Assembly (NCBI RefSeq): GCF_002222615.2
Contig: NZ_CP022412.2
Span: 744,001 to 808,000 of the forward strand
Direction of reading: 5' to 3'
From: Bacteroides caccae
Lineage (GTDB): Bacteria > Bacteroidota > Bacteroidia > Bacteroidales > Bacteroidaceae
Length of the DNA: 64,000 nucleotides
The notes below the pieces were generated by a model. It saw nothing but the letters and a program-made list of their open reading frames with translations. It did no database searches and had not been told where the DNA came from. Shown one piece after another: positions 31,908 to 54,126 of this stretch. The position numbers were made by a program, and so were the translations under genes. Numbering within the stretch: the stretch's first letter is position 1; each line of letters opens with the position of its first letter.

Positions 31908-32903
31908 TTACTGAGCCTCGTTTGCTTCCGGCGTTGTTTGAGTATTCCAGTTAGTTACATCTGGAGTAAATGTAACATTTTCAGCTCCTCCTGGTAATAA
32001 AAGAGTATAAAGAATCTTATCACCAGCTCCCCAAACAACATCTTTCAAACTAACTTTTTTCTCTCCATTAAAGACTTCTCCACCACCATATACAGTAGAA
32101 TATGCTATTGTTATTTCTGCATTTTCTCCCAAAGTTTGCGGCATTAACATTAATGCATTATCACCCGTTGCTAAAGTAAGTCCAGAAGTACCTGTAAAAT
32201 CGGTATAAGTTGCATTATACTGATACGATTTAGGAGTAGAAGGACTTGACCAAGTACCTACTACACTCTCAGTAGGATCAACATAAGTAAAATTTCCAGT
32301 ATTATTTATTCCTGACAAAGTAATCTCGGTTACTTTATAAGTAAAACCATCATCCTTCCCTTTTAATTTGAAATTAATCTGGGTCAGGACATGTTTAAAA
32401 TCTAATTTTACAGGTGTACCGGATACTCCCGGTTTGGTTTCATTTTTTGCATAAGCCACGACTAAATCTTCTTGAGAATCAACGATAGTATAAGAAAAAC
32501 TTGGATAACCTGCTTTTGAACTAGTCGGCTTAACATAGCTCACATTAGCCACAGGCGAATATGAAAAGAATTGAATCTTATCCTTTAAAGGCCAGTAATA
32601 AGGCCCAACAGGGTTCATTGTCCATGCTGAGCTATTCCAAGAAACTATCACACCATTCATAAATAGTGTTTCACCCAAAATGGTTTCAGCAGACATATCA
32701 TTATTCTTTGTATTATATGCAAAAACCTTAAACCCACCATTAGTTTTCAAACCTTCTGTCTTCAACTCGCTCGCTCTTGTTGCCTTACTTACTATGGTAG
32801 TAAAGTTAATCTCAGTTTTCTGTCCTTCATTCTCAAATTCTTCATTCTGTGAGCAACTCGTAATTGCCAAAGCAGCTGTTACTGCCAATAAAATCTTTTT
32901 CAT
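31908..32903 (-). CDS. Fimbrillin family (Mfa-like) lipoprotein
   Basis: 331 residues with lipobox ITSC (Cys17), then the opening of a Bacteroidales fimbrillin (EINFTTIVSKATRASELKTEG), including the Arg cleaved by trypsin-like proteases in related pilins. Two beta-sandwich domains are expected, with YYWPLKDKIQFFSYSP and VTLAGINN-type segments between. It would be a pilus shaft or tip subunit that assembles by donor-strand exchange after lipoprotein export. Last gene of a three-gene operon with DUF5119 and DUF3575 proteins. Confidence 0.8.
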   Translation of the reverse strand: MKKILLAVTAALAITSCSQNEEFENEGQKTEINFTTIVSKATRASELKTEGLKTNGGFKVFAYNTKNNDMSAETILGETLFMNGVIVSWNSSAWTMNPVGPYYWPLKDKIQFFSYSPVANVSYVKPTSSKAGYPSFSYTIVDSQEDLVVAYAKNETKPGVSGTPVKLDFKHVLTQINFKLKGKDDGFTYKVTEITLSGINNTGNFTYVDPTESVVGTWSSPSTPKSYQYNATYTDFTGTSGLTLATGDNALMLMPQTLGENAEITIAYSTVYGGGEVFNGEKKVSLKDVVWGAGDKILYTLLLPGGAENVTFTPDVTNWNTQTTPEANEAQ

Positions 32904-32957
32904 AACTGTATCTTTTTAGTTAATAATATTATTCTATTCTGTTTATGCTATTAGGAA

Positions 32958-33953
32958 TCAGTTTACTGGTAATTCAACATTATCTTCTGGTCCCCAACCA
33001 TCAACGTTTCCATTCATTCCTCCACCCCCGTCAGGATTAGGTGGTGTTTCCGGTTTCTCTACTTCAATCTTATCATCAGGTGGCAACTCAATCTCTGGTG
33101 GCGGATCTTGTTTTCCTGCTTCCTCCTCCTCATCTTTTTCAAGCGTACCAATTATTTCAGTAACATCAATCGTCCTTTCCTGTATCGTATTATCAGTTCT
33201 TACAAAACTTAGTATCAACTTTACACTACTTGCTTCTCGATAGACCGGTTCTCCCAACATTGACATTCGCGTCGGTATATCTTTCGCCCCTTTAAAAGCA
33301 GTAAAATGCGCTATTACTTTGCCACCCTCCTTCTTTGCTTCAAAATAAATAGGCTGTGAGTTACACATTCCGCAACCTTTACCTATACAATAGCAATCAG
33401 ACAATCCATTTACACACCCTATAACTGATGTCACATATTCCAGTCCTTTCACCTCTATTGCAAAGGAGTAGTTCTTTATCACCGATTCCAATTTCCAATC
33501 CAAGTGAAACACTTCATCACTTTTCTTTATTTTCAATTCATCAATATTCAACACATATAACGGGTCCGGCGACCAAACCATTTTTTCAGTTCCGGCAATG
33601 CCCAAACCATTACAATATCCCGTATATGCCTCAATCGTTTCATAGGACTCCTCACCTCGGATTCGCACTACTTCCGTGTTATAGTTGTAAGCTACCACCG
33701 AATATCGTCCGGGAGGGACCTTCATCTCCCCGCCTTGTACCGAAAGGTACCTATCCACTTTTCTGCCTTCCCCGTCTTTCGGATAAAATATAATCCGAAC
33801 TCCTTCCGGCAATTCATCTGTTACTCCGGCCCAATCTAACGAGATTTCCACCCCGCTTACAGGATAATCATCCAATACATCGCGACGACTACACCCGGTC
33901 AGCATCAGCAGCGAGGACAGAAGCACAAGAATAATATATCTTGTATCTCGCAT
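32958..33953 (-). CDS. DUF5119 lipoprotein, probable fimbrial anchor/tip-related subunit
   Basis: 331 residues with lipobox LTGC (Cys21). The start of the mature protein (VEISLDWAGVTDELPEGVRIIFYPKDGEG and PPGRYSVVAYNYNTE) is the DUF5119 pattern seen in Mfa2/FimB-type neighbours of fimbrillins. A Cys-rich stretch (CVNGLSDCYCIGKGCGMC) near the middle is unusual and could bind metal or form disulfides. The C-terminal ~50 residues are rich in Pro, Glu and Gly and probably disordered. Start is 7 bases after the DUF3575 gene. Confidence 0.72.
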   Translation of the reverse strand: MRDTRYIILVLLSSLLMLTGCSRRDVLDDYPVSGVEISLDWAGVTDELPEGVRIIFYPKDGEGRKVDRYLSVQGGEMKVPPGRYSVVAYNYNTEVVRIRGEESYETIEAYTGYCNGLGIAGTEKMVWSPDPLYVLNIDELKIKKSDEVFHLDWKLESVIKNYSFAIEVKGLEYVTSVIGCVNGLSDCYCIGKGCGMCNSQPIYFEAKKEGGKVIAHFTAFKGAKDIPTRMSMLGEPVYREASSVKLILSFVRTDNTIQERTIDVTEIIGTLEKDEEEEAGKQDPPPEIELPPDDKIEVEKPETPPNPDGGGGMNGNVDGWGPEDNVELPVN

Positions 33954-33960
33954 AACGTCC

Positions 33961-35238
33961 TTACCTCCTTGTTGTTATCAGCCATACCAGAGAAATTTTC
34001 GCCTTGGTAGGGCCAATAAAGTTATAACGCCCACTATTTGTCCATATAATATCCCCCTCGTAAGGAGTATATTTCTTATATTCCGTTGTCAAATACCCTA
34101 TGCCGAGACTGAACTCAAGTGAAAAATGAAGTGCCAGTTGTCGTGCATACCCGTAAGTCACTCCTGCAGCTCCATAATACTTACCTTGATAACCGTCTCC
34201 CTGTAATTGAAAGTCATATATTCCACCTTCAGCATAAAGCCCGATAAAATGCCCGGTCAACCGATTATGTTTCTGCCTGTTTCCCAACCAGTAACGTCCT
34301 TCCATGCCTCCTGAAAGAAGTTGATAGCAAAAATCATGTTCACTATTCAGCCACCACGGGCATTTGTATTCGGTATTCAAAGACCACCGTTTGCCTAATG
34401 GAATCTCCACTTCTATATTCGGCGCCAATGCCATATCATATAGCAGGTTATTCTTCACTGCAAGTACTGTTTTACTTTTCCCCGGTCCTTCTGCCTCCGA
34501 CATAACTGCCTCACAGGTCTGTTCATTTACACTTTCTCCCACAGACTTATCAGGCTGACTATCCGGAAGCGCCTCTTCCTGTCTTGAAACCAACAACTCG
34601 GAGACAGAAGATACCGGTTCAAAGGTTTCCTTCGCCACTTCCGAGATTTCCCGGACTATTGTAATTTCAGACCGCCTCAACTTAGGAAATACATTGTTGA
34701 CCATGTATCTGTAAGCAGCTCCCTGATTTAACTTACGTAACAATTGTTTCCGTTTTACGATATCATTCTTATGATAATCAATCAATATCAACACTTCCTC
34801 ACGATCCGGCAGGTTAGGGTCAGCTGCCGCTATCTTACGTAACTCTGACCAATTCTCGCCAGCTGAAAAATAATGAATCTTATTAACGTCAATATCCGAA
34901 TGGTATCGTTGTAAAAACTCACTAATCGAATGGTTCCTCTTGGAAATCAAACTTGCATTATAAGACTCATCGCCTTCAGGAGAAACAAAAGTGGTTACAT
35001 TCAAAGCAGTTATATATTTGGTATCCGCATTTCCCGCCAACAAAGAGTCTAACATCATAATCATCCGATTATTACTTTTATAGCGAGAATCAATACAAGT
35101 CCCAGACGCCTCAAAATATATTACTACCTGTCGGGCTGTATCACTTGCAACTGTAAAAAACGGGACCATAGCATATCCACTTTCTGAAAGGCTGAGTAAT
35201 GCCATAAAAAAAGTCAATATATAGGTTCCATGTTTCAT
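33961..35238 (-). CDS. DUF3575 outer-membrane protein with OmpA-like N-terminal part
   Basis: 425 residues with a signal peptide (about 1-23). The N-terminal half (QVVIYFEASGTCIDSRYKSNN with TTFVSPEGDESYN and AGENWSEL) resembles the OmpA-like domain of Bacteroidales fimbrial operons. The C-terminal half is DUF3575 (VKNNLLYDMALAPNIEVEIPLGKRWSLNTEYKCPWW), an eight-strand-type outer-membrane barrel. It probably anchors or assembles the fimbria. First gene of the operon; minus-strand promoter element TATATTTG at 35258-35265. Confidence 0.75.
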   Translation of the reverse strand: MKHGTYILTFFMALLSLSESGYAMVPFFTVASDTARQVVIYFEASGTCIDSRYKSNNRMIMMLDSLLAGNADTKYITALNVTTFVSPEGDESYNASLISKRNHSISEFLQRYHSDIDVNKIHYFSAGENWSELRKIAAADPNLPDREEVLILIDYHKNDIVKRKQLLRKLNQGAAYRYMVNNVFPKLRRSEITIVREISEVAKETFEPVSSVSELLVSRQEEALPDSQPDKSVGESVNEQTCEAVMSEAEGPGKSKTVLAVKNNLLYDMALAPNIEVEIPLGKRWSLNTEYKCPWWLNSEHDFCYQLLSGGMEGRYWLGNRQKHNRLTGHFIGLYAEGGIYDFQLQGDGYQGKYYGAAGVTYGYARQLALHFSLEFSLGIGYLTTEYKKYTPYEGDIIWTNSGRYNFIGPTKAKISLVWLITTRR

Positions 35239-35387
35239 AATTGTTCGTTTCTGTGAGCAAATATAGAAGTTAAGAAATGAATAAAATCATACTTTCAGAA
35301 CAAAATATAGAGTGTGGAAGGTTCTGTGAACCGATTGAAACGATTTTGCAAGTTTGGAAAGGATTAACAGCAGAATATAAACAAAAA

Positions 35388-35430
35388 AGATGCACAGATC
35401 ATCGAACATTTATCGATTCTCTGTGCATCT
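35388..35430 (-). terminator. Terminator of the HU gene
   Basis: 11-bp perfect stem (35388-35398 with 35420-35430, AGATGCACAGA) plus an inner ATCGA/TCGAT pairing, followed in minus-strand sense by TCTTTTTTTG. It separates the HU gene from the fimbrial operon that begins at 35238. Confidence 0.85.
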
Positions 35431-35468
35431 ACAACTCTAAAGCCTTCTTTAAAGCAAAACTAAACTTA

Positions 35469-35966
35469 TTATACTGCCGGATCGGGTGTCACTCCTCCTT
35501 CTCCCTTGCCATCATCGCCAGAACCCGGCTTTCCGCCGGTATTGCCACCGTTGCTACTTCCGTCCGTATAATCTGTTTCAATCTCCGCACGACGCGTAAT
35601 ACTCATGTCCGCCAACGTATCTTTGAATATTTTCCCCGGATAGAATAAAATCTTTCTCTGAACGATTGACTTGGACGAAATTTCCTTTTCTTCATCCGAG
35701 CTTTTTGTACGGATAGTAGGGCTAAAGATTCCGAACTCACCCAACTGAACGCTCTTTCCGTCATCAATATCCTCAGCCATTTTATCTACCAGACCACTGA
35801 CTACCAAATCGACCACTTTCCGATGAACACCACAAAGCTGACTTACTTTGCGACACATCTTTGCAAAATTAACCCTACCGGAACGAACCGATTTTGCTAC
35901 ATACTTTTCGTTTTTGTCTTTGTCAAAACCGAACACTCTTTTTGTTACTACATACTCTAAAGCCAT
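35469..35966 (-). CDS. HU-family DNA-binding protein
   Basis: 165 residues. The HU/IHF-type core spans about 1-120 (VDLVVSGLVDKMAEDIDDGKSVQLGEFGIFSPTIRTKS) in the variant form found in Bacteroidetes, and the C-terminus is a Gly/Asp/Glu-rich low-complexity tail (GSSNGGNTGGKPGSGDDGKGEGG). It is a nucleoid protein. Minus-strand promoter element CAAAGATA (36039-36046; TATCTTTG in sense), 70 bases upstream. Confidence 0.85.
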   Translation of the reverse strand: MALEYVVTKRVFGFDKDKNEKYVAKSVRSGRVNFAKMCRKVSQLCGVHRKVVDLVVSGLVDKMAEDIDDGKSVQLGEFGIFSPTIRTKSSDEEKEISSKSIVQRKILFYPGKIFKDTLADMSITRRAEIETDYTDGSSNGGNTGGKPGSGDDGKGEGGVTPDPAV

Positions 35967-36703: not shown

Positions 36704-37627
36704 TCATGTTATTCCCAAGAAATTACTCATACGGTCAATACACCGTTTCTTTTGATTGAGATTAGGATGAACGTACAGATTAAGTGTCGTTGCCACATTT
36801 GAGTGACCGAGTATGACACTGACAGTTTTATAATCACACTGGCTTTCAATACATCGGGTCGCAAATGTATGCCTAAGTCCATGAAAGACCAAGTGGGGAA
36901 TATCCAATCGTTTTAGCAACCTGCCAAAATAATCACGATAAGAACGAGGCTCTTTAGATTGTATGGAAGTGCCTACCACGTATGGGGATTGAGATTGTTT
37001 CCTTACCATTTTCAACGCTTGGAAAAGCTGTTTGGATATAGGAATCTCACGACAAGAATTCTTGGTTTTTGGGGAAGAGTGAACCCTTTCTGTAGATTTC
37101 AACTCACAGTTATATATTCTGCCTACAGTATGCTGCACGATGACTGTCTTTTGTGCAAAATCCACATCTTCCCATTTCAAAGCACAAACCTCACCGATTC
37201 TCATTCCGGTACAGAGAGCCAACAGTACACCTATATTTTGTGGAGTGGGCTGTTCCAGCAAGTGACGCATCAATATACGCTGATGATTTAATGACAATGT
37301 TGGCGGCAGTTTGTTTTCTGTTTGGGTAGGATATTCGATTTCCCATTCTTCAAAATGGAAAATCCCATGCTTATTCCCATATTTGATAACAGATTTGAGC
37401 ACTGCCACTATATCCCGAACTGTTTTTCTTGCTAATCCGGAAGTACATTTGTCTATCACAAACTGCTGGACATCCTTCTCTGTTATATTTTCCGCAGCGC
37501 CAAATCGTGGCAATAGGTGTGTCTGTAACGTAAGCTGATAAGCACATAGGGTGGAATGCTTCACTATCGGACGTTTTGCATCACACCAAATCTCGGAAAC
37601 TTCGTGAAATGTTTTTTTATTGTTCAT
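36704..37627 (-). CDS. Tyrosine recombinase/integrase
   Basis: 307 residues. An N-terminal SAM-like core-binding domain (about 1-100) precedes the catalytic domain with Arg143 (TGMRIGE), His249 and Arg252 (HGLRHT), His275 (LGHSN) and nucleophile Tyr285 (NLYVHP); the catalytic set is complete. Such genes sit next to capsule loci, integrated islands and invertible DNA in Bacteroides. Here it lies 45 bases after the DUF262-HNH gene in the same direction and about 2-3 kb from the invertible methyltransferase segment, so it is the natural candidate for that inversion. This is inference. Confidence 0.88.
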   Translation of the reverse strand: MNNKKTFHEVSEIWCDAKRPIVKHSTLCAYQLTLQTHLLPRFGAAENITEKDVQQFVIDKCTSGLARKTVRDIVAVLKSVIKYGNKHGIFHFEEWEIEYPTQTENKLPPTLSLNHQRILMRHLLEQPTPQNIGVLLALCTGMRIGEVCALKWEDVDFAQKTVIVQHTVGRIYNCELKSTERVHSSPKTKNSCREIPISKQLFQALKMVRKQSQSPYVVGTSIQSKEPRSYRDYFGRLLKRLDIPHLVFHGLRHTFATRCIESQCDYKTVSVILGHSNVATTLNLYVHPNLNQKKRCIDRMSNFLGIT

Positions 37628-37672: not shown

Positions 37673-38845
37673 TTACCGATTTCCCTTTGAACGGTTATGG
37701 GTTTTACAAAGCATCTCACAATTTTCCATGCTGGTTGCCCCTCCCTTGCTCCATGCAGTCACATGGTCGGCATCCATTTCTGAAAGTTTGTAAATACGGG
37801 TTTTGTTGGCATTATTCCCCAACGCACAGAGCGGACAATTAGAAATTCCTTGTTTCTCAGCCGCTTCGGTCTGACGCTTGTAAGCAGCCCGCTTGGTTGA
37901 TTCTTCAAAGATTCGGACGTCAAGCAGTTTCTTATCCTCTTCTCCACCCAGTACATATTCGTAAATATTTCTGGGACACCGCACACTTTCATCCGCTTGC
38001 AAGGCTTTTACCCGTTCTGTAACATGGACGGTGCTATAAGGGGTGGTATGGTACGTTTCATACAGCCGTCCCCATTCCAAACCGCACATGTCACGCTCTA
38101 CCATAGTAAAGGTAGTTGATACCCAGTCAATCACAGAACGGAAATAACCTTCCAATTCTCCCGTGGAAGGCTCGTGACGGTGTATGCTCATATAGGCGTC
38201 GATGCTCATCCCCTTACTGTCGCAAATCCACCGGAGGGCTTCCGCCAGATAATCCTGCCGTTTCACATCTCCCTTGATATAATGATTCCATTTCTGTATT
38301 TCCGCATTTTGGGAATTACTGAACACCCGCTTGGCTGCATTTACGAACTCGCCCGAATAGATGGCATTGAGCAATTCCTGCTCCTTGAGCGGAATGCCCA
38401 CAATATTGATAGTCTTAAACCACTCTTTTATTTCCTTTTCTTCACCCTCGCATTCATATACCAGCAGAGAGGATTGCATAATCTTTTGTTGCTGTTCTTC
38501 GGGCAATCCCGAGAAATACTGCACGTTATCCGCTTCATTCTTGATGGCGAATTTGCCTGTGATGAACCGGCCGATGGAAGTGATGCGTTGCTGCCCGTCA
38601 AGTACTTCAAATCGTCCGTCCACAGTCCGGTTGAAATAGATTAGTCCGATGGGATAGCCTTTTAGCAGGGATTCTATTACCGCTACATCACGTTTCCCAT
38701 CATTGTAGATGTAATGGCGTTGATACTCGGGTTGGATAGTGAGCCGCCCGTCCAATCCAAACAGACCTTTACCTTCCAATTCGTTGTAGGTAAATCCTTT
38801 ACAGATGTCTTCGACAGTCCATTCTGTATGCAATGTTGTCTCCAT
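37673..38845 (-). CDS. DUF262 (ParB/GmrS-like) protein with C-terminal HNH endonuclease
   Basis: 390 residues. The N-terminal DUF262 domain (about 10-200) has PEYQR and the DGQQR motif at 83-87, which in the ParB/Srx-like fold binds and hydrolyses nucleotide. The C-terminus is an HNH nuclease (about 330-390) with [16 protein letters not shown] and [10 protein letters not shown], all key residues present. DUF262 nucleases (GmrSD, BrxU, SspE) restrict foreign or modified DNA. In this island it follows a BRO-N protein (22-base gap) and a DNA methyltransferase gene, so it may be the effector of a modification-linked defence system. Confidence 0.85.
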
Positions 38846-38867: not shown

Positions 38868-39719
38868 TTATTCTTTTGTGTCTTCTTCTTCCGGAGATGA
38901 ATTGAGCGCAATACCTGTCTTGGCGTTCAGCGGACTGATGACAGCCTTGCCCGTCTTGGCTTCCAACTCCATACGGGCATTGCGGGCAATCTCACCACCG
39001 GCTTCCGCCACATCCATGTGTTCCCGAAATGTCTCCGGATTTTTACTTTCAGATATTTCTTTGGTGGAAAGTTCCGCCAACATATTTAGTACCAATTCCT
39101 TATTGGTCATATTGTCACGTAAGTTCTCTTTTTTCAGACCTTTGAACTGCTTATATTCCTTGGCGGTCATGTCACTCCAAGTCTGATAAATAATATCGGT
39201 CAGCGTAGCAAACTGCACCCCCTCTTGCAATCCGTGCCGCTTCCATTCATCCGTGAGGTCTTTACGAATCTCTATGGATTTGAGACGCTGATTAATCCAA
39301 TTATCCGAATACCCCAACCGCTTATAGTCCACCAGTGCTTGATTGATAGAGAGTTCGGGGTCTTGCATTTGGTTAAGACGTTCAGTCGCCACTTGTGCCA
39401 TCCATTGCTTGAACGGTTCTGCTTTGGGCGATGGAATAGACTGAATCAAACGGAGAAGCTGCTGAGTATCTGCGACATCGGTTAAATACATCTTTCCATC
39501 AGCCGATCTCATTTTCAGTTGACTACAATTTGTAGTCAACTCACTCCCTTCTTTTTTTAAACGTGTTTTCAAGACACTCCAATACTTACGAGGATTAGGG
39601 CTATCGGTTAGGACAGCCACCACATCCACTATGGAAAAGTACCATTTTTCTTCTTTGTCATCCCAAATGGTACGCACTTTCTTGGTTTCAAAAAGCTTGA
39701 TGGCATTATGCTGAGTCAT
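38868..39719 (-). CDS. BRO-N/DinD-like protein
   Basis: 283 residues. The N-terminal BRO domain (about 8-115; KKVRTIWDDKEEKWYFSIVDVVAVLTDSPNPRKYWSVLKTRL) is a DNA-binding domain of phage antirepressors. The remaining part resembles DinD, the damage-inducible protein of E. coli (LGYSDNWINQRLKSIEIRKDLTDEW and ITYQTWSDMTAKEYKQFKGLKKENLRDNMTNKEL-like sequence). The role is not established; DinD inhibits RecA filaments in vitro. Its start lies 28 bases downstream of the left inverted repeat of the invertible segment, so its upstream region would change on inversion. Confidence 0.78.
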   Translation of the reverse strand: MTQHNAIKLFETKKVRTIWDDKEEKWYFSIVDVVAVLTDSPNPRKYWSVLKTRLKKEGSELTTNCSQLKMRSADGKMYLTDVADTQQLLRLIQSIPSPKAEPFKQWMAQVATERLNQMQDPELSINQALVDYKRLGYSDNWINQRLKSIEIRKDLTDEWKRHGLQEGVQFATLTDIIYQTWSDMTAKEYKQFKGLKKENLRDNMTNKELVLNMLAELSTKEISESKNPETFREHMDVAEAGGEIARNARMELEAKTGKAVISPLNAKTGIALNSSPEEEDTKE

Positions 39720-39747: not shown

Positions 39748-40134
39748 TTAAAATCTTAGGGATAACCGATAGGCAAAACACATCTTGCTTAAGAACCAAG
39801 AAATACACGAATGTTGACAGCCAAAATACAACGACTTGAATGCGAGAAGCGTTATTAAAGATGGCAGAAGATATATTCCTATGTATGCCCGATTACTCAT
39901 CCGTAAATTATAATCTGATATGTCTGATAAGTACTCTTGCATATACTTGGGTGTAATACTTTCCGTCAACTATATAATAAGTCTCATTTTGAGGAACTTT
40001 AGAATGAAGCAATACCGCTCCATCATTAAGTTTCGTCACTTTGGATTCTTTCCCATGGTGGTCTATTTGAATTTGCTCGGGATAAATCTTAGAAGCTATT
40101 CCATACCAAGTTTTAGTTATCCCTAAGATTTTAA
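39748..40134. repeat. Probable invertible DNA segment bounded by 19-bp perfect inverted repeats
   Basis: TTAAAATCTTAGGGATAAC occurs at 39748-39766 (plus sense) and as its exact complement at 40116-40134, 349 bp apart. The right copy encodes FKILGIT (residues 323-329) of the methyltransferase; the left copy is beyond its stop. Inside the segment the current C-terminal codons (minus strand, 40115-39908) and an alternative C-terminal cassette (plus strand, 39767-39913) are tail to tail, their stop regions overlapping. Inversion would keep the frame at the repeat (ATA AC-) and put the alternative cassette behind residue 329. Confidence 0.85.
39767..39913 (+). pseudogene. Silent alternative C-terminal cassette of the methyltransferase, frameshifted
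   Basis: Read from the repeat in the frame set by GIT, the plus strand gives DRQNTSCLRTKKYTNVDSQ and then meets TGA at 39837. One base further on in phase, the sequence continues as YNDLNARSVIKDGRRYIPMY and ARLLIRKL, ending TAA at 39911-39913. This tail matches the end of the expressed copy (YARVLIRHIRL) and the usual C-terminal pattern of EcoRI-family methyltransferases (LRTKxY, YNDLN, YARxLIR). A single missing base in the A-run at 39823-39826 explains the break. As written, inversion would yield a shortened protein of about 350 residues. Confidence 0.75.
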
Positions 40135-41101
40135 ATTGCTCCGGACAATATTTAATCAGAAATGAGATAGGAACTCCCATCACTCCTTCATAATCTGACG
40201 GAATGGCATCCGTAAAAGGTACTTCAATGGCATCATAATTATCGTAGCGGTCATAGGCAGCTTTGCCTTTCAGTTCCTTATGTTTGGAAAAGCGGAGGTT
40301 GTCTGCCATGCTCATCAGTGACAATGGCTCGTGACGACGACCATGTTCAATACTGGTAAACCAACATGAATTGCCCAATCTGGTATAATTGCCTACATAT
40401 CCTAATCTTGCAGCTTTAGCCCTGTCTTTCTCATCCACTTTAGCTCCTTCAGGAACACCAAAAACCATATCATTTCCATTTCCTGTAGCACCTAACCAAA
40501 CTTTGTTATCTTTTATCAGTGGAAAGACCTCTTTATAAGTGATTGCATTCATATTACCTATTACAGCAAATTTCTTCCCGGCTTCCACAATCCAAGCCAA
40601 GAATTCACGAAACAGGGAGAATGGCGGATTGGTGATGATAAAATCCGCTTCATTGCGAAGCTCGGTAACTTCTTTGCTTCGGAAATCTCCGTCACCTTCC
40701 ATATACTTCCACTCAAGGTCATCAATATTGATACGTCCGTCCCCACTTTTGTCTCGTTCCAAGATGAATATCTTACCTTTCACCTGTGCCTTGGACGGGT
40801 CGAACTGAGGTGCTTCTTGCTCAAACAAAGAGGGCTGATAAGGCGTTTTGTATTTTTTGCTATCCGGCGCATAGCTCGTAGAAATCAGTTTTTTCAAGCC
40901 CAACTCATCGAATTTGGCAGCAAAGTATCGGGTAAAGTTGCTCCATTCTGGATCATCACAAGGAAGAAGCACAATCTTTCCTCGAAACACATCGGGGTCA
41001 TATTCAAGATAGGCGTTCATTTCAATCTCTATGTCATGAAATTGCGTATAGAACTCATCATTCTTAGCCGCCTTAGCTTCTTTTAGATTAGTATTTGCCA
41101 T
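39908..41101 (-). CDS. EcoRI-family adenine-specific DNA methyltransferase with switchable C-terminus
   Basis: 397 residues. The EcoRI-methylase family pattern is clear: KNDEFYTQFHDIEIEMN at the start, a SAM-site region VLLPCDDPEWSNF (about 44-56), and the catalytic NPPF at 158-161 (IITNPPFSLFREF). It would methylate adenine in a specific sequence. No EcoRI-like endonuclease is adjacent; instead BRO-N and DUF262-HNH genes follow. The last 68 residues (330-397) lie inside the invertible segment described at 39748-40134, so the product can have two C-termini. It starts 12 bases after the broken Cro-like gene, with which it probably shares a promoter (TACCTTTG in sense, 41330-41337). Confidence 0.88.
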   Translation of the reverse strand: MANTNLKEAKAAKNDEFYTQFHDIEIEMNAYLEYDPDVFRGKIVLLPCDDPEWSNFTRYFAAKFDELGLKKLISTSYAPDSKKYKTPYQPSLFEQEAPQFDPSKAQVKGKIFILERDKSGDGRINIDDLEWKYMEGDGDFRSKEVTELRNEADFIITNPPFSLFREFLAWIVEAGKKFAVIGNMNAITYKEVFPLIKDNKVWLGATGNGNDMVFGVPEGAKVDEKDRAKAARLGYVGNYTRLGNSCWFTSIEHGRRHEPLSLMSMADNLRFSKHKELKGKAAYDRYDNYDAIEVPFTDAIPSDYEGVMGVPISFLIKYCPEQFKILGITKTWYGIASKIYPEQIQIDHHGKESKVTKLNDGAVLLHSKVPQNETYYIVDGKYYTQVYARVLIRHIRL

Positions 41102-54063: not shown

Positions 54064-54126
54064 AAGAACCGGTAATAATTTTGTTTTCCTCACTAAAAAG
54101 TGAAACAGAAATTATTACCGGTTCTT
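54064..54126. terminator. Strong bidirectional terminator between GH3 and CotH genes
   Basis: Perfect 18-bp arms (54064-54081 and 54109-54126, containing AAGAACCGGTAATAATTT) around a 27-base loop that pairs in part. It lies between convergent genes with T-rich flanks on either side. Confidence 0.85.

What the first reader, a model, noticed from the sequence alone, without database searches (positions are those of the whole stretch)
39748..40134. Invertible segment that swaps the C-terminus of an EcoRI-family DNA methyltransferase
A perfect 19-bp inverted repeat lies at codons 323-329 of the methyltransferase and 349 bp away beyond its stop. The DNA between encodes two C-termini tail to tail: the current one on the minus strand and, on the plus strand, a different tail (DRQNTSCLRTKKYT, then YNDLNARSVIKDG and YARLLIRKL) that has the EcoRI-methylase C-terminal pattern and ends like the current YARVLIRHIRL. 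Inversion keeps the frame at the repeat, so the same N-terminal 329 residues would receive either tail. Inversion of target-recognition domains is known for type I HsdS subunits and shufflon pilins; I know of no well-described case for an EcoRI-type single-chain methyltransferase. The swapped tail may set sequence specificity or activity, giving an epigenetic switch.
Basis: partly seen in the sequence, partly recalled or inferred. Interest (0 to 1): 0.93.

Follow-up and report, generated by a model that had tools for sequence, protein, structure and literature searches.

The report
Shuffling tail of a DNA methyltransferase
Gut bacteria related to Bacteroides appear to use a dedicated recombinase to flip small DNA cassettes and so give one DNA-methylating enzyme different end pieces, probably changing which DNA sequences the cell marks as its own.

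Summary
The inverted repeat is real, and the flip is visible between isolates. In two Phocaeicola massiliensis records the methyltransferase body is identical over 966 nt, while the 384-nt segment matches at 99.7% inverted but 68.7% direct. The window's exact 319-residue N-terminus occurs with three tail types, and a public protein equals the window's flipped product bar two residues.

Fifteen loci, window included, carry 2-4 tail cassettes around a 13-bp core, in both orientations. Of 50 testable methyltransferase/nuclease loci, all 15 with the adjacent tyrosine recombinase have several tails; all 35 without it have one. Most tails have fixed C-terminal relatives in loci without the recombinase.

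The core system is a gene pair: EcoRI-family methyltransferase and DUF262-HNH nuclease. No nuclease region tracks tail class, so the tail is probably a recognition module and the nuclease probably depends on the methyltransferase or its mark. Inversion rate, specificity and nuclease activity are untested.

Correction: in this genome the silent tail is frameshifted, so a flip gives a truncated 352-aa protein.

The parts
39908..41101 (-). EcoRI-family N6-adenine methyltransferase, 397 aa, tail A in the expressed position
   Evidence: PF13651, 405 bits; PADLOC MTase_II
40122..40134 (-). 13-bp core site at the body/tail junction (right arm of the 19-bp repeat, 40116-40134)
39748..39760 (+). 13-bp core site in front of the silent cassette (left arm of the 19-bp repeat, 39748-39766)
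39908..40121 (-). Expressed tail A (ITKTWYG...YARVLIRHIRL) with its stop codon
39761..39913 (+). Silent tail B cassette, reading frame broken near 39820; intact copies exist in L002 and other relatives
40364..40492 (-). Second variable region of the methyltransferase, V1 (about residues 204-246)
38868..39719 (-). Bro-N protein, present in some of the shufflon loci only; role unknown
   Evidence: PF02498; PADLOC PDC-S13; synteny
37673..38845 (-). DUF262 (GmrSD_N)-HNH nuclease, partner of the methyltransferase
   Evidence: PF03235 and PF01844; PADLOC REase_II; conserved neighbour
36704..37627 (-). Tyrosine recombinase, probable invertase of the cassettes
   Evidence: PF00589; co-occurrence with cassettes; relatives near hsdS pieces

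Best explanation
The locus is a recombinase-driven shufflon that exchanges the C-terminal recognition tail of an EcoRI-family adenine methyltransferase in a two-gene restriction-modification-like system. The tyrosine recombinase at the far end of the operon acts on a 13-bp core that codes for (F)-E/K-I-L-G at the body/tail junction and stands again in front of each silent cassette. Inversion, and gain or loss of cassettes, puts a new tail in frame behind the fixed body of about 328 residues. Shown: cassettes and sites, opposite orientations in isolates, one N-terminus with several tails, co-occurrence with the recombinase. Inferred: that this recombinase does it (about 0.85), that the tail sets the DNA sequence methylated (about 0.7), that the nuclease is aimed or licensed by the methyltransferase or its mark (about 0.5). 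In this strain the only silent tail is frameshifted, so a flip would here give a truncated, probably inactive methyltransferase.
For: L002 and L044: body 966/966 nt identical, segment 99.7% identical inverted, 68.7% direct. The window's 319-aa N-terminus occurs with tails A, B and ISLELG, another N-terminus (35 sequences) with six tail types; P0036 matches the flipped product bar two residues. 15 of 15 loci with the recombinase have several tails, 35 of 35 testable loci without it have one. Site codons GAA ATC TTA do not vary at third positions in 13 shufflon loci but do in 30 fixed-tail loci. 39 of 41 cassette tails match a fixed C-terminus at E<=1e-3, 34 at <=1e-10. Recombinases of about 50% identity lie near HsdS-like pieces in 10 of 12 fetched loci, in both orientations in 8. 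Both models put the junction at the end of the stretch that aligns to the M.TaqI catalytic domain. No nuclease window tracks tail class.
Against: No reads, methylomes or assays were available. The window's and L044's silent tails are broken, and one of L003's seems so. Recombinases of 65% identity or more also occur with no methyltransferase or cassettes found: L097/L085 and L086, and L099 with a broken nuclease. The recombinase-bearing loci are one clade of the nuclease tree, so the 15-against-35 split is about one gain and one loss, not 50 independent cases. L012's core sites differ from the consensus. A second region, V1, also varies, so the tail cannot be the whole specificity story. The tail-B model is of low confidence in the tail.
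Confidence: 0.75

Rival explanations
1. ON/OFF phase variation: the flip mainly switches the methyltransferase between an active and an inactive form, not between specificities.
For: In this genome the flipped product is truncated at 352 aa; L044's silent tail has lost the usual final strand; a 352-aa protein of this kind is in the database (P0036).
Against: 38 of 41 cassette tails look full-length with the final strand (corrected for its pattern's four misses); identical N-termini occur with several full tails; the tails resemble fixed C-termini elsewhere.
Confidence: 0.12
2. The tail is not for DNA recognition but for binding the nuclease or for escaping phage inhibitors, and the sequence methylated stays the same.
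For: The tails are short, 30-80 residues, and a second variable region V1 exists that could carry recognition.
Against: The nuclease does not co-vary with tail class, against docking by tail type. The junction lies where class-gamma enzymes have their recognition domain (the class layout is recalled).
Confidence: 0.15
3. The rearrangements come from general homologous recombination or horizontal exchange of tails, and the recombinase is only an integrase of a mobile element.
For: An 85%-identical recombinase lies in a 5.1-kb contig without cassettes (L097). V1 also exchanges, with no inverted site known there (L013).
Against: L002 and L044 differ by an inversion bounded by the core sites with almost no flanking change. 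Site codons are held fixed. Recombinase and extra cassettes occur together in 15 loci and are both absent in 35.
Confidence: 0.07

Closest known systems
Inverting type I R-M loci (hsdS shufflons such as SpnD39III of Streptococcus pneumoniae; passages of PMC7394358)
   Same: Inverted repeats inside specificity genes, silent copies next to the expressed one, a recombinase gene in the locus, a choice of recognition modules. The window's recombinase is related to ones near HsdS pieces in Bacteroidaceae.
   Different: There a separate S subunit serves methylation and cleavage. Here a single-chain methyltransferase changes its own C-terminus and the nuclease is a separate DUF262-HNH protein; no Methylase_S in the operon. 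The cassettes are 30-80 codons and the core is 13 bp.
Shufflons of plasmid R64 type (recalled; named in passages of PMC5903667)
   Same: Several C-terminal cassettes in both orientations, recombined at short core sites to give one gene alternative C-termini.
   Different: R64 changes a pilus protein (recalled); here a DNA methyltransferase.
Moving recognition domains in Helicobacter pylori types I, III and IIG (passages of PMC7379913)
   Same: Modular exchange of recognition domains among methyltransferases.
   Different: There by gene conversion, per the passage; here by inversion at dedicated sites. V1 in this family may be the ordinary kind.
SspE of the phosphorothioate system (passages of PMC9646914)
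   Same: DUF262 domain with DGQQR plus an HNH nuclease, encoded with a sequence-specific DNA-modifying system; DGQQR in 45 of 45 nucleases here.
   Different: Different mark (phosphorothioate against probable m6A), DUF1524-type nuclease domain there, PF01844 HNH here; dependence on the mark is not tested here.
EcoRI type IIP R-M system
   Same: Methyltransferase family PF13651.
   Different: Partner nuclease is DUF262-HNH, not an EcoRI-like enzyme. In the Helicobacter phage record opened, the partner is annotated as restriction endonuclease EcoRI.

Membership tests
Shufflon (multiple invertible C-terminal cassettes) | Several cassettes in both orientations bounded by repeats of one core site | tested here: met
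   41 sites in 15 loci; the window itself has only two
Shufflon (multiple invertible C-terminal cassettes) | Alternative arrangements of the same locus exist | tested here: met
   L002 against L044; one N-terminus with several tails
Shufflon (multiple invertible C-terminal cassettes) | A locus-linked site-specific recombinase performs the inversion | tested here: inconclusive
   Linked recombinase in 15 of 15 multi-tail loci; its activity cannot be tested here
EcoRI_methylase family PF13651 | Match above the curated cut-off over the full length | tested here: met
   405 bits against 26.4, residues 5-394
Inverting type I R-M (hsdS) | HsdS subunit with Methylase_S domains | tested here: not met
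   None of the four operon proteins matches Methylase_S
Type IIG / IIL combined enzyme | Nuclease and methyltransferase in one chain | tested here: not met
   Separate genes
EcoRI-type IIP R-M system | EcoRI-like endonuclease partner with its own matching recognition | tested here: not met
   Partner is DUF262-HNH; its own recognition, if any, was not assayed
Tyrosine recombinase | Phage_integrase domain with Arg, His-x-x-Arg, His and Tyr | tested here: met
   PF00589, 97.9 bits; motifs located; the residue rule is recalled
GmrSD/SspE-like modification-dependent nuclease | DUF262 with DGQQR plus HNH nuclease | tested here: met
   45 of 45 with DGQQR, 44 of 45 with the HNH pattern used
GmrSD/SspE-like modification-dependent nuclease | Cleavage depends on a DNA modification | not testable with these tools
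   Needs biochemistry

The most novel reading that the evidence does not exclude
A two-gene restriction system of an undescribed type: a DUF262-HNH nuclease with no sequence specificity of its own is aimed by, or licensed by the mark of, a separate EcoRI-family methyltransferase that carries two independently exchangeable recognition modules (V1 in the body, V2 the tail). One clade has captured a recombinase of the kind found near type I hsdS genes and uses it to rewrite V2 within a clone, so that self-marking and restriction change together without self-destruction.
Probability: 0.4. Interest if true: 0.92.

Novelty: new variant of a known kind. Interest (0 to 1): 0.83.

Why it matters
Switching of specificity by inversion is established for type I S subunits, which serve methylation and cleavage alike. 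Here it acts on a free-standing methyltransferase paired with a separate nuclease, which makes a question directly testable: how such a nuclease spares the genome when its partner changes. About ten interchangeable tails, most with relatives that are fixed C-termini elsewhere, are a natural library for reading a recognition code. The proteins occur in common gut species: one cluster bearing a Bacteroides thetaiotaomicron name stands for 761 contigs. They would add a source of methylome diversity and phage-defence variation within a clone.

Tried and rejected
Chance repeat: rejected. Type I hsdS locus: rejected, no Methylase_S in the operon. Tail as docking site matched to the nuclease: not supported. 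Solved relatives by sequence: none at E<=0.01 for either protein; with the alignment, one unrelated dehydrogenase at E 0.63. Foldseek with the tail-A model: none at E<=0.001. VIA-align gave methyltransferase folds in which RNA enzymes rank as high as M.TaqI, so the M.TaqI range is weak support only. Near-identity search of phage records: no match. No tRNA found in the window.

Mistakes mended on the way. The first nuclease tree left three recombinase-bearing rows (L051, L053, L084) unlabelled and gave 5 changes; with the two duplicates dropped and L084 labelled it gave 2; L114 was in neither tree. A pattern put L029 and L016_2 in tail class B; corrected by hand. The final-strand pattern missed YARVLV endings (4 of its 7 misses). 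V1 was parsed in 35 of 54 proteins only. L012's expressed site has more than two mismatches and is not among the 41 sites.

Dropped before counts. Loci lacking either gene (among them L085, L086, L099) are outside the 58 of that table. In one search, 20 of 47 nucleases were left out (tail unclassed, tandem methyltransferases, or no methyltransferase). In one search, 13 of the 15 shufflon loci were in the codon table (L009 and L012 were not), and 30 of 32 fixed-tail loci gave a site. Of the up to 39 recombinase matches, surroundings were fetched for 20 genomes, 12 of them of about 50% identity.

Literature. Ten searches; four gave none or two papers, the others capped lists (for example 20 of 1,683, 15 of 50). 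In the titles and abstract openings listed I saw none on inversion in an EcoRI-family methyltransferase. Of papers I saw passages only: PMC11868660, PMC5903667, PMC7394358, PMC7379913, PMC9646914, PMC4081073. The intragenic-inversion paper of Chanin et al. is not held; its tables or other inverton surveys may list this locus. Supplements were not open.

Full report
Observation. The 19-bp repeat, its geometry and the two tail-to-tail coding tails are as described, and the repeat is far beyond chance. The minus-strand gene is an EcoRI_methylase. The claim that either tail would join the body intact fails in this genome: the silent tail is frameshifted and the flipped product ends at 352 aa. Intact copies of that tail exist in relatives.

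What surrounds it. On the same strand follow a Bro-N protein, a DUF262 (GmrSD_N)-HNH protein and a tyrosine recombinase. PADLOC names the methyltransferase MTase_II, the DUF262-HNH protein REase_II and the Bro-N protein PDC-S13. The methyltransferase plus DUF262-HNH pair is the conserved unit. In one search the nuclease follows the methyltransferase in every locus whose sequence reaches that far, in records named as Bacteroidota, Comamonadaceae, Spirochaetia, Saccharibacteria, Fibrobacter and others (many are metagenome bins). It does so too in three of four annotated plasmid or phage records opened; the fourth, a Helicobacter phage, has an annotated EcoRI nuclease instead. In Bacteroidales the nuclease was found in 11 of 393 genomes and in 10 of 158 genomes of the window's genus, the window's own counted in both. 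In 21 of 27 fixed-tail loci measured the two genes lie within -23 to +8 nt; in 12 shufflon loci measured 186-1242 nt lie between them, room taken by silent cassettes and, where present, Bro-N.

The tail is a module. Among 48 aligned family members mean pairwise identity is 67% in residues 1-328 and 30% beyond; 24 of 37 pairs with over 90% identity in the body have under 45% in the tail. Tails run from a conserved I-L-G strand to a final strand of the Y-x-R-I-L-I kind. AlphaFold2 gives strands at the end of both tails; the tail-A model is confident (mean pLDDT 86.8, tail mostly about 90), the tail-B model is not within its tail (blocks of 49-62, then 86 at the end).

Shufflon. A scan for the core site found 2-4 sites in 15 distinct loci, window included, 41 in all, in direct and inverted orientation. 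By my own grouping there are about ten tail types. 39 of 41 tails have a relative among fixed C-termini at E<=1e-3 and 34 at <=1e-10; some of the weaker ones rest on the final strand alone. Three of 41 look broken, all silent: the window's, L044's and one of L003's. Of 58 methyltransferase/nuclease loci, 15 have recombinase and several tails, 35 have neither, none is mixed, and 8 end too soon to tell. On the nuclease tree this needs two changes, read as one gain and one loss. The loss is L018, where the methyltransferase has an internal stop and a transposase-like gene (recalled resemblance) lies downstream. So the 50 loci are not independent cases. From the recombinase side the picture is less clean: of nine Bacteroidaceae genomes with a recombinase of 65% identity or more, eight have nuclease sequence beside it, one of them broken and with no methyltransferase found (L052/L099), and one has neither (L050/L097). 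A viral contig, L086 (73%), also has neither.

Direct evidence for inversion. L002 and L044, both P. massiliensis, share 966 of 966 nt of body; the segment between sites is 99.7% identical inverted (384 columns, 4 gap positions) and 68.7% direct. L002 has one more cassette of 116 nt. The protein search scored 7999 candidates and listed 120. These with eight locus proteins have 60 distinct N-termini before the site; 11 come with more than one tail string, of which one is a mere point variant and one rests on a chimera-like protein (P0025). The window's N-terminus occurs with tails A, B and ISLELG; another, in 35 sequences, with A, B, QTQGDSG, MCENEDL, ISLELG and NRGVDQD types. P0036 equals the window's flipped product bar two residues. 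P0029 has the window's first 329 residues and tail B, but on a 2.3-kb contig whose far end looks chimeric. Sources are not shown for P0029 and P0036, and cluster sizes are at 90% identity, so they are not counts of one state. Many of these proteins are metagenomic; L002 and L044 are named strains.

Site. In 13 shufflon loci the codons ATC TTA are invariant and GAA varies only in the window (AAA), with no third-position change; 30 fixed-tail loci use many synonyms. The window has the changed base in both copies, as expected if recombining sites must match. L012 departs from the core in its sites. The recombinase has the expected Arg, His-x-x-Arg, His and Tyr motifs (the rule is recalled). Ten of 12 fetched relatives of about 50% identity have HsdS-like pieces nearby, eight in both orientations, two none; Pfam found Methylase_S in the three loci tested.

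The nuclease problem. A passage of PMC7379913 says that in type II systems the two enzymes recognise their sequence separately, and that recognition domains move in types I, III and IIG. A free methyltransferase that changed its sequence would then expose the genome to its nuclease. Here the nuclease is 97-98% identical to the window's in loci whose expressed tails are A, B, D and E. Among 276 distant pairs (33 of one tail class) no nuclease window was more than 0.02 more alike within a class than between classes, against 0.26-0.38 for the methyltransferase tail and about 0.1 for V1. Some loci have two methyltransferases with different tails before one nuclease (L016, L040). So the nuclease most likely lacks a matched recognition domain and is aimed or licensed by the methyltransferase or its mark. 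SspE is a precedent for a DUF262-HNH effector that relies on the host's own mark (passages), and its DGQQR motif is in 45 of 45 nucleases here. This step is inference.

Verdict. I saw no description of it in the held literature, within the limits stated under Tried and rejected.

Noticed in passing
window 40364-40492 and family-wide: Second variable region V1 in the methyltransferase body, at least 9 groups among 35 parsed proteins, assorting independently of the tail.
   Followed up: partly
L016, L040, L035: Two tandem methyltransferases of this family before one nuclease; in L016 and L040 their tails differ.
   Followed up: partly
L097 (G074) / L085: An 85%-identical recombinase in a 5.1-kb contig with an ATPase-like gene and a Dam-like methyltransferase (names by eye), without cassettes.
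   Followed up: no
L102, L103, L104, L105, L107, L108, L109, L111: Recombinases of about 50% identity near HsdS-like pieces in both orientations, apparent type I shufflons of Bacteroidaceae.
   Followed up: partly
L018: Decayed member of the recombinase-bearing clade: internal stop in the methyltransferase, transposase-like gene downstream, no recombinase found.
   Followed up: partly
window 38868-39719: Bro-N protein inside the operon in part of the shufflon loci, matching PADLOC candidate PDC-S13 with 459 bits.
   Followed up: no
window 31908-35966: Fimbrillin-like operon (Mfa_like_1, DUF5119, DUF3575) and an HU-HIG protein beside the island.
   Followed up: no
window 54064-54126: Perfect 18-bp inverted repeat of short span between convergent genes, probably a terminator hairpin.
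   Followed up: no
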